Source: an uncultured Ureaplasma sp. (lineage in GTDB: Bacteria; Bacillota_I; Bacilli_A; Mycoplasmatales; Mycoplasmoidaceae). From it: 64,000 nucleotides of DNA. Positions 43,401-45,977 of this stretch are shown piece after piece. The translations under genes and the position numbers were made by a program. The notes below the pieces were generated by a model. The model made no database searches. It was not told the origin of the DNA and was given only the letters and a program-made list of their open reading frames with translations. The stretch is taken from NCBI GenBank assembly GCA_902800015.1, contig CADCCU010000005.1, positions 1 through 64,000 on the forward strand, written 5' to 3'. Numbering within the stretch: position 1 is the stretch's first letter; every line of letters starts with the position of its first letter.

Positions 43401-44840
43401 AATTAAATCAATACCTTGTTGTTCCAAAATTTCATTAGTAATGTGAGTTTTTGATGAAATGTATGATGAAATTGGTTTTATAGGTTTAATAAAAAAATCA
43501 ATCCGGTCAACAATTTTTAAATCTTTAATTTTTACAGCACCAAATTCAATTAAATCATTAAATTCATTATTTAATCCAGAAGTCTCAATGTCAAATACAA
43601 CCATTTCTGATTTAACTAAGTCTTCATCACGCGGATTTAATACATGAACTGCTGATTCATTTAAAACATTCAATTCTACACCATAGATAACTTTTTGACC
43701 AAGTTTTTTAGCAATGTTATATGCATCAGGGAATGATTGAACATTAAAACGATCGATAATGCTTATGGCATTCCAGCCAAACTGTTTACTACGTTCAATC
43801 ACTTCTTGTGTAGAGCAAATCCCATCAAAAGCTGACATTTTAGTATGAACTAATAATTCAACTCTTTTATTTTTAGCATCATCTTCACGGATAAATTCCT
43901 TAGGAGTTTTTATCTTAATAATTTTGCGAACTAAACCAGTCAATTCGTTTGAATTATATTTATCGATATTAAATGAACACTCCACATTAATTCAATCATT
44001 AACATGGAATTCATCAAGATATGATGAAGGTAAATTATTTCATGATTTATTTATATTCAAATGATTATCTGTTGCGAAACATTTAATTTTTATGGCATTT
44101 TTAAAATCAGTTACCCAAAAAGTGTAAATAGTGGAACCATTTTTTGTTTTAGTCTTATCAGTCTTAAAGATTTGGCATTGTAATACACCATAATTTACGT
44201 TATTATCAACTTCATTAATTTGAATAATTTTTTTTGTATTAATTTTATTATTCCTTAATATTTGTGCATTAGTTTCATTAATTGAGCGAATATTTTTAAA
44301 TGATTGATTAATTTCATTCATTTTTTGCATATTGTATAACTCAAGGGACTGCTTATCTTTGCTAAAAGCAAATTTTAAACTATTAATCTTAAATCCTGCG
44401 GCTTTAAATGACAATATAAAATATGTTTGTAATTCATTTAATATTTTTTCTTCAAAATCATGAAAATAAGAAAAAGTTAAATTACCATTTTCTATTTTTA
44501 TATCAGTAATATTTAATAGATTTTTAGTTTCTGATTTATCTAATGACAATTTATTAACAAAATAAACAAAATAATCTTTTACTTCTTTTTCACTAAAAAA
44601 CTCAGTTTCACCTTTTAATTCTATTTCAAAAGAATCATGACAAAAATTCTTTATGGCATTTACGATTTTAGTATAAATGTTTATTGGCAATACTTTATTT
44701 TTTAAAGTTATAACAATTCTTGAATTATTAGTAGCTTTATTCTTGTTAAAAACAAAAGAAACAACATTAACAATTTGATCAAATTCTTCACCTGTTAAAA
44801 TTTTTGAACGCTCAAAAAATTCTCGAAATTTGTTGTTCAT
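40488..44840 (-). CDS. polC: DNA polymerase III alpha subunit PolC
   Basis: Replicative polymerase of low-GC Gram-positives and mollicutes; 1450 residues. Order: N-terminal domain and OB fold (residues 1-270), PHP part ([17 protein letters not shown]), inserted 3'-5' exonuclease ([38 protein letters not shown]), PHP remainder ([10 protein letters not shown]), polymerase core. The core shows [18 protein letters not shown], zinc knuckle CPKCHY...[17 protein letters not shown], and [15 protein letters not shown]-terminal helix-hairpin-helix [18 protein letters not shown]. Trp codons are mostly TGA. A minus-strand TATACT (44848-44853) is 7 bases before the start. Confidence 0.97.
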
Positions 44841-44887
44841 ATACGATAGTATATATATACCAATTAATGTTGTAAAAAAATAATATT

Positions 44888-44895
44888 TGTATAAT
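44888..44895 (+). promoter_or_regulatory. Extended -10 promoter of the repeat RNA
   Basis: TG directly followed by TATAAT (TATAAT at 44890-44895) on the plus strand. Transcription would begin at about 44901, the first base of the 44-base repeat. A TTGTAA at 44870-44875 is a weak -35 with short spacing, but an extended -10 can work without it. Confidence 0.6.
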
Positions 44896-44900
44896 AATTT

Positions 44901-44988
44901 AAAGGTTAGGGAACGGATGCTGCCCTCAACAACAGTCCAAGTATAAAGGTTAGGGAACGGATGCTGCCCTCAACAACAGTCCAAGTAT
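44901..44988 (+). repeat. Perfect tandem repeat, 2 x 44 bases
   Basis: Two identical 44-base copies with no spacer, starting AAAGGTTAGGGAACGG and ending CAGTCCAAGTAT. Identity is complete, so the duplication is recent, is held by selection, or could be an assembly artefact. An AAAG after the second copy is the start of a would-be third. Confidence 0.97.
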
Positions 44989-44994
44989 AAAGTG

Positions 44995-45025
44995 AAATGT
45001 TTCTCAACAATGGGAAACATTTTTT
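44995..45025 (+). terminator. Rho-independent terminator of the repeat RNA
   Basis: A perfect 9-bp stem AAATGTTTC/GAAACATTT (44995-45003, 45014-45022) is followed by a T run to 45025. Two more inner pairs are possible, leaving AACAAT as loop. The T run is on the plus strand, fixing the direction of transcription. The loop region contains CTCAACAA, the same octamer found in each 44-base repeat. Confidence 0.88.
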
Positions 45026-45053
45026 ATTTATAGCCATAAAATAAATAAAAAAA

Positions 45054-45977
45054 TTATTTATTTACTACTTTGTAAATGTTTTTTAATTTAATGACAAAAT
45101 GGTTAATTCCAGAACGGGTTATTTTAATTTTATATGTTTGTTGGTATAAATTAGCCAATTCACTAATACTTGCAGTTGGATAATTTAGACGTAATTGACA
45201 ATACTTTTTAAATTTATCGTTTTGATCTTTATATAATTGGGCGTTTATTATTGCTTTAATCATAGTTGTTTGTATGTCGCTTGCCTTTGCAGATTTAGAT
45301 ATATTTGATATATCTAAATTGTTTAATCGGTGTAACTGATTATTAAAATCTCTTGAAATTATGGTATCTTCTAATAAAGACATATTTTCAATTGCGTTAA
45401 TATGTTTCAAAAAATCAGAAACTTCGGTTGAACGCTTAATATAAAGTACAGTACTATATTTTCGCTTCAATAAAATTGGTGAAAGTCTTCAACTAATAAG
45501 AATTTGTTGAATTAATCTTAGGTATTTACCATTAGTACTTCTGATTTCTAAATGATAAAATGGTTTAGAGATATCGCTGATACTTCCGCCACTTAAAAAA
45601 GCTCCGATAACATAAGCACTTTTTTCTTTTTCAGTTTTAGTAAATTTTATATCTTTATCATCTAAAACTTTTAACTCGTTGAGAAGCTGTTCAAACTTTA
45701 CTTGATTAATAGTTAACCGATAAAGTCGTTTTTTATTAAAATTATTAATTTCACTGTATGACAAATGGTGATCAGTCTTAACTATCTTATCTAAACATTC
45801 AGTAATAAATCTTATCACAAATGAGAAATTAGATTCAACATAATATTCAATTTTTGATTGTGATAAAGAAATCTTCATACGATTTGTTAAAAATGATGAT
45901 AAAATCCTTTTTATTGATTCAGTATCGTAATCATTATTGCAAATTTCTTGTTTAATTGAAACACTAAATGTTGGCAT
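45054..45977 (-). CDS. whiA: WhiA-family DNA-binding protein
   Basis: A 307-residue homolog of sporulation and division regulator WhiA. The N-terminal part starts MPTFSVSIKQEICNND and has degenerate LAGLIDADG homing-endonuclease motifs, for example SAYVIGAFLSGGSISD. The C-terminal part ends in a helix-turn-helix region (LRLNYPTASISELANLYQ...ITRSGINHFVIKLKNIY). In Firmicutes WhiA influences cell division and chromosome segregation. The start is the ATG that overlaps the trxB stop (TAATG), and trxB-whiA proximity is conserved in Bacillus. One Trp is TGA at 45489-45491. Confidence 0.9.

What the first reader, a model, noticed from the sequence alone, without database searches (positions are those of the whole stretch)
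44888..45027. Stand-alone RNA gene made of two identical 44-base pseudoknot units
A GC-rich island (about half G+C) sits in strongly A+T-rich DNA between polC and whiA. It starts right after an extended -10 (TGTATAAT), contains two perfect 44-base copies and ends at a strong terminator. Each copy can form an H-type pseudoknot: AGGG pairs with CCCT, and GGA-CTG pairs with CAG-TCC inside its loop, with an A-rich third loop that could lie in the minor groove. No gene follows on the strand, so it looks like a free regulatory RNA with tandem ligand- or protein-binding modules. I recognise no known riboswitch or sRNA class.
Basis: partly seen in the sequence, partly recalled or inferred. Interest (0 to 1): 0.88.

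Follow-up and report, generated by a model that had tools for sequence, protein, structure and literature searches.

The report
Orphan ToxI-type RNA antitoxin, toxin missing

Summary
In detail: between polC and whiA lie a -10 box (TGTATAAT), two perfect 44-nt tandem units and a strong terminator, with no gene following on that strand. The claim that no known class fits does not hold. The same RNA (two 43-nt units plus terminator) sits directly upstream of a ToxN/AbiQ endoribonuclease gene (PF13958, E=1.5e-28) in another genus of the family (G047). G104, in that genus, has one unit, a terminator and a frame-broken toxN. That is the type III toxin-antitoxin (toxIN) layout, so the window RNA is a ToxI-type antitoxin. 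Here it is an orphan: no toxN lies beside it, and none was found in the 94%-complete assembly or in three close relatives. A second orphan copy, 97% identical with one unit, lies at another locus in G015, while four-fold sites of the two genomes agree only 42-54%. G017 keeps a remnant with the core deleted. The whiA-polC gap is short and empty in G017 and G034, so the RNA is an insertion. Most likely it binds ToxN in trans as a cleavable tandem pseudoknot; whether it is a shield or a young relic is open. Rfam has no match, but also misses ordinary toxI loci.

The parts
44888..44895 (+). -10 box TGTATAAT (TATAAT at 44890-44895); a -35 is not clear
   Evidence: Read from sequence. The same TGTATAAT precedes the G015 copy, and TATAAT precedes the G047 and G104 copies.
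44900..44943 (+). Antitoxin unit 1 (44 nt). Proposed S1: 44908-44911 with 44923-44926; S2: 44915-44918 with 44935-44938
   Evidence: Repeat; model R1 match 69.6 bits; same topology found independently in the G047 units.
44944..44987 (+). Antitoxin unit 2, identical. S1: 44952-44955 with 44967-44970; S2: 44959-44962 with 44979-44982
   Evidence: Repeat; model R1 match.
44988..44992 (+). Third copy of the unit-edge TAAAG; with 44900 and 44944 it flanks both units, as expected of ToxN processing sites (inferred)
   Evidence: Sequence; repeat boundaries.
44994..45027 (+). Rho-independent terminator. In toxIN operons it separates antitoxin from toxin; here nothing follows
   Evidence: 13-pair stem and T-rich tail. 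The stem is kept with changed base pairs in G017 and G047.

Best explanation
The 44888-45027 element is a toxI-type antitoxin gene (promoter, two pseudoknot units, terminator) of a type III toxin-antitoxin lineage of the ToxN/AbiQ family that has lost its toxin gene. The RNA would work as known ToxI RNAs do: a ToxN endoribonuclease cuts the tandem transcript at the A-rich junctions, and each 44-nt H-type pseudoknot bridges toxin molecules and blocks their active sites. With no toxN found in this genome the RNA can act only in trans, most plausibly by neutralising ToxN brought in by a plasmid, phage or other mobile element (anti-addiction). Shown: homology to a toxN-linked RNA, operon layout in relatives, absence of toxN from the assembly, near-identity of a second orphan copy at another locus. 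Inferred: transcription, folding, binding, and the protective role rather than a silent relic. Confidence is for identity as an orphan ToxI-type antitoxin; a protective role in the present cell is about 0.45.
For: G047: two units and a terminator directly before a toxN, PF13958 at 1.5e-28, AbiQ in PADLOC, solved ToxN 4ATO at 1.2e-16. G104: one unit, terminator, broken toxN. 30 positions of the unit are invariant in all six units. An RNA model finds only G000, G015, G047 and G104 convincingly among 95 family genomes and no further genome among 395 of the class. No ToxN in G000, G015, G007 or G017. Copies in G000 and G015 are 97% identical while four-fold sites agree 42-54%. The whiA-polC gap lacks the RNA in G017 and G034. 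Layout equals the published definition of type III loci (PMC5086642).
Against: Only four genomes carry the unit, so covariation is thin: one S1 pair changes on both sides and S2 does not vary. The pseudoknot alone is within chance. Units (44 nt) are longer than the 34-36 nt of known ToxIN RNAs. G015 has a mismatch in S1 and one unit, and G017 is a remnant, which looks like decay. The assembly is 94% complete, so an unlinked toxN could be missing.
Confidence: 0.9

Rival explanations
1. Young relic: the toxin was lost, and the antitoxin is still transcribed or even silent but no longer does anything and is decaying.
For: G015 has a single unit with an S1 mismatch. G017 keeps only a unit end and the terminator. 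G104 shows a toxin already broken.
Against: Promoter, two perfect units and terminator are intact in G000, and 97% identity to G015 contrasts with near-saturated four-fold sites, unless transfer was recent.
Confidence: 0.4
2. The RNA has a partner toxin elsewhere: in the missing 6% of the genome, on a plasmid, or too diverged to be seen.
For: The assembly has 14 contigs and 94.36% completeness; G015, G007 and G017 are 78-85% complete.
Against: toxN is downstream of its RNA in known loci, in G047 and in G104. No PF13958 or G047-ToxN match in four genomes.
Confidence: 0.13
3. An unrelated regulatory RNA or riboswitch with tandem pseudoknots.
For: Free-standing position, no match to Rfam.
Against: Close homologues with identical layout are directly upstream of toxN. 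Rfam also misses the toxI loci of Listeria, Staphylococcus and Haemophilus plasmids and a Clostridioides phage.
Confidence: 0.05
4. The second unit is an assembly duplication of a single-unit element.
For: The two copies are letter-identical, and G015 and G104 have one unit.
Against: G047 has two non-identical tandem units with nearly the same spacing. Near-identical tandem units are normal for toxI arrays.
Confidence: 0.04

Closest known systems
Type III toxin-antitoxin ToxIN/AbiQ family (ToxIN_Bt, antiQ-AbiQ, ToxIN_Pa)
   Same: Tandem short repeats, H-type pseudoknot potential, terminator behind the repeats; in the homologues G047 and G104 a ToxN-family toxin follows. The G047 toxin is nearest to ToxN_Bt (4ATO) among solved structures.
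   Different: No toxin here. Units of 44 nt instead of 34-36; no sequence similarity to those antitoxins.
CptIN of Eubacterium rectale
   Same: 45-nt units, about two repeats, A-rich second loop (PMC4627078).
   Different: L1 here is 3 nt instead of 1; the linked toxin in G047 matches ToxN, and CptN is not among its solved-structure hits.
Pseudo-ToxI repeats of phage PhiTE
   Same: ToxI-like repeats outside a toxIN operon that can neutralise ToxN in trans (PMC3475682).
   Different: A phage escape locus, against a chromosomal gene with its own promoter and terminator.
Chromosomal anti-addiction modules and orphan protein antitoxins
   Same: Proposed logic: neutralise the toxin of an incoming element (PMC12548467).
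   Different: Those described are mainly protein antitoxins of other types; here it is an RNA.

Membership tests
Type III toxin-antitoxin system (complete toxIN locus) | Tandem array of short nucleotide repeats | tested here: met
   2 x 44 nt, perfect.
Type III toxin-antitoxin system (complete toxIN locus) | Rho-independent terminator after the repeats | tested here: met
   13-pair stem plus T-rich tail at 44994-45027.
Type III toxin-antitoxin system (complete toxIN locus) | ToxN-family toxin gene directly downstream | tested here: not met
   whiA ends convergently at 45054; no ToxN in the assembly. Hence not a complete system.
ToxI-type antitoxin RNA (antitoxin half only) | Homology to an RNA encoded directly upstream of toxN | tested here: met
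   G047 (E 2.6e-16, 75%) and G104.
ToxI-type antitoxin RNA (antitoxin half only) | H-type pseudoknot in each unit | tested here: inconclusive
   Same topology in G000, G047a and G047b, but 9-21% of shuffles reach the score; one S1 pair changes on both sides; G015 S1 has a mismatch.
ToxI-type antitoxin RNA (antitoxin half only) | Processed and bound by ToxN, suppresses its toxicity | not testable with these tools
   Needs a bench assay.
Any Rfam 15 family | Match to a covariance model | tested here: not met
   None at gathering score, and only one irrelevant sub-threshold hit (nos_TCE, upstream of the element) at E up to 10. Four known-type toxI loci also give none, so the test says little.

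The most novel reading that the evidence does not exclude
The toxin-free antitoxin (promoter, units, terminator, about 140 bp) has become a gene in its own right that spreads between loci and species of this genus and protects its bearer against ToxN carried by other elements: a stand-alone chromosomal immunity RNA against type III toxins.
Probability: 0.3. Interest if true: 0.72.

Novelty: new variant of a known kind. Interest (0 to 1): 0.55.

Why it matters
Chromosomal toxin-antitoxin modules and orphan antitoxins are discussed as anti-addiction or anti-defence factors, and phages can carry ToxI mimics. In the papers searched I found no report of a chromosomal toxin-free type III RNA antitoxin with its own promoter and terminator, and none of type III systems in Mollicutes; only a limited open-access library was searched. 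If it works, a cell could be immune to toxIN addiction or abortive infection at the price of about 140 bp. The species series (intact pair, broken toxin, orphan, core-deleted remnant) also lets decay or domestication of a toxin-antitoxin pair be followed step by step.

Tried and rejected
Rfam at gathering and relaxed thresholds: nothing relevant. Viral contigs with a rigid and a gapped pattern, and the G047 ToxN against viral contigs: nothing. Plasmids by distant DNA search: none; phages: one 26-nt chance match. A rigid pattern over the family missed G047 because of a 1-nt indel, so a model was used. Weak model hits in G034, G035 and G008 were read and judged chance. A riboswitch or trans-acting sRNA unrelated to a toxin was rejected because of the toxN linkage. 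MAFFT does not align the G006 leader usefully, so its AGGG/CCCU-type pseudoknot is kept as suggestive only. A first reading of the upstream sides of minus-strand ToxN hits was on the wrong side and was redone.

Full report
Observation. The two units at 44900-44987 are perfect copies in tandem. They lie behind a TGTATAAT -10 box and in front of a 13-pair terminator, between polC and whiA, which are both on the minus strand (whiA confirmed by Pfam). The RNA is divergent from polC and convergent with whiA, so it has no downstream gene. The genome is a 568-kb mollicute assembly, 94% complete. The same genus contains the assembly RUG12784, labelled uncultured Ureaplasma sp.: the G007 contig and the public contig CACZNK010000025.1 have the same length (11,358) and the same ORFs.

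Relatives. BLAST of the element over 99 related genomes gave two clear further copies and one fragment. G047, another genus of the family, has two units of 43 nt, a similar leader and a terminator. The ORF whose ATG follows the terminator T-run is a ToxN: PF13958 at 1.5e-28, AbiQ in PADLOC, solved ToxN 4ATO at 1.2e-16. Its PLTSK stretch lies where the active-site residues Thr52, Ser53 and Lys55 are reported for ToxN_Pa (PMC5086642); this is read by eye and not tested. G104, same genus as G047, has one unit, a terminator and a toxN whose frame is broken after 106 residues; it was left as it is. [quoted passage not shown]

Orphan status. No PF13958 match exists in G000 nor in its close relatives G015, G017 and G007. 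The G047 toxin finds only a 28-residue hit at E 0.04 in G000. G015 carries an orphan copy with one unit near upp, at another locus. G017 carries only the last bases of a unit and the terminator, near tuf, with the unit core missing. The whiA-polC gap is about 40-55 bp and lacks the RNA in G017 and G034. It holds another small gene in G015, and other genes follow whiA in G007. The window copy is therefore an insertion into a variable gap. The G000 and G015 copies are 97% identical, though four-fold degenerate sites of polC, whiA and upp agree at only 42-54%. Either selection is strong or transfer was recent; the present data do not separate the two. Both orphan copies begin to match at the -10 box and stop matching right after the terminator. 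That would fit a cassette that moved without toxin, but these are also the functional boundaries.

Distribution. A model of the unit finds G000, G015, G047 and G104 in 95 family genomes, with all other hits at chance level, and only G000 among 395 genomes of the class. Plasmid, phage and viral collections gave nothing.

Structure. An unguided search for the best H-type pseudoknot returns the same topology for G000 (AGGG/CCCU; GGAU/GUCC), G047b (GGGG/CCUC; GGAU/GUCC) and G047a, with L1 3, L2 4 and L3 6-8 nt, but 9-21% of shuffles do as well. One S1 pair shows a change on both sides. S2 is invariant among the true homologues. The more distant ToxN loci G006 and G020, in the window's own genus, start with a similar GUUAGGGG leader. 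G006 offers AUUCC/GGAAU as S2, which would be a full replacement of S2, but homology is not established and its 3' strand overlaps the terminator stem.

Mechanism. By analogy with ToxI and CptI (PMC5086642, PMC4627078), ToxN would cleave at the A-rich junctions and be held by single units. Two units are close to the minimum reported for ToxI_Pa and antiQ (2.5 and 1.8 repeats), and one CptI unit suffices. Without toxN in the genome the RNA can act only on incoming toxin. Phage PhiTE shows that ToxI-like repeats outside the operon can neutralise ToxN (PMC3475682), and chromosomal anti-addiction modules are described (PMC12548467). Against a function stand the single, S1-mismatched unit of G015 and the remnant of G017.

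Verdict. This is an orphan ToxI-type antitoxin of a type III lineage so far seen only in this mollicute family. Identity is well supported (about 0.9). Given that identity, present function is open between protective RNA (about 0.45), young relic (about 0.4) and partner of an unseen toxin (about 0.13).

Side finding. Six other ToxN-family genes of the window's genus carry a different leader: a single pseudoknot of constant geometry with a hairpin in its third loop, directly before the toxN ATG and without a terminator. All three helices pair fully in all six loci, and S2 partners exchanged between loci pair only 57% (the elements were chosen by eye, so this is not a blind test). It deserves its own study.

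Noticed in passing
L061, L062, L063, L064, L066, L070 (about 60-75 nt before the toxN ATG; L061 and L063 on the reverse complement): Second, single-copy antitoxin-like RNA before ToxN-family genes: H-type pseudoknot S1 UGGU/ACCA (AGGU/ACCU, UGGC/GCCA), S2 CCCAA/UUGGG, CCGAG/CUCGG, CGUAU/AUACG or CCGG/CCGG, no junction base, an extra covarying hairpin in loop 3, and no Rho-independent terminator. It could be a new type III antitoxin architecture.
   Followed up: partly
L058 and L060 (G006, G020), leader of toxN: Single-unit leaders starting GUUAGGGG followed by a terminator-like hairpin; possibly distant relatives of the window unit.
   Followed up: partly
window 44839-45053 and the same gap in L077, L081, L025, L030: The whiA-polC gap is a variable site: antitoxin RNA in G000, a small HHVVPN-motif gene in G015, a helicase-like gene cluster beside whiA in G007, empty in G017 and G034.
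   Followed up: partly
L078 924-1399: In G017 the antitoxin remnant lies beside a relative of the small HHVVPN-motif gene that occupies the whiA-polC gap of G015; the two may travel together.
   Followed up: no
L004 1697-2968 (minus strand): Directly upstream of the complete toxIN pair of G047 lies a 423-aa AAA ATPase resembling AbiEii/AriA-type defence ATPases, so the pair may sit in a small defence island.
   Followed up: no
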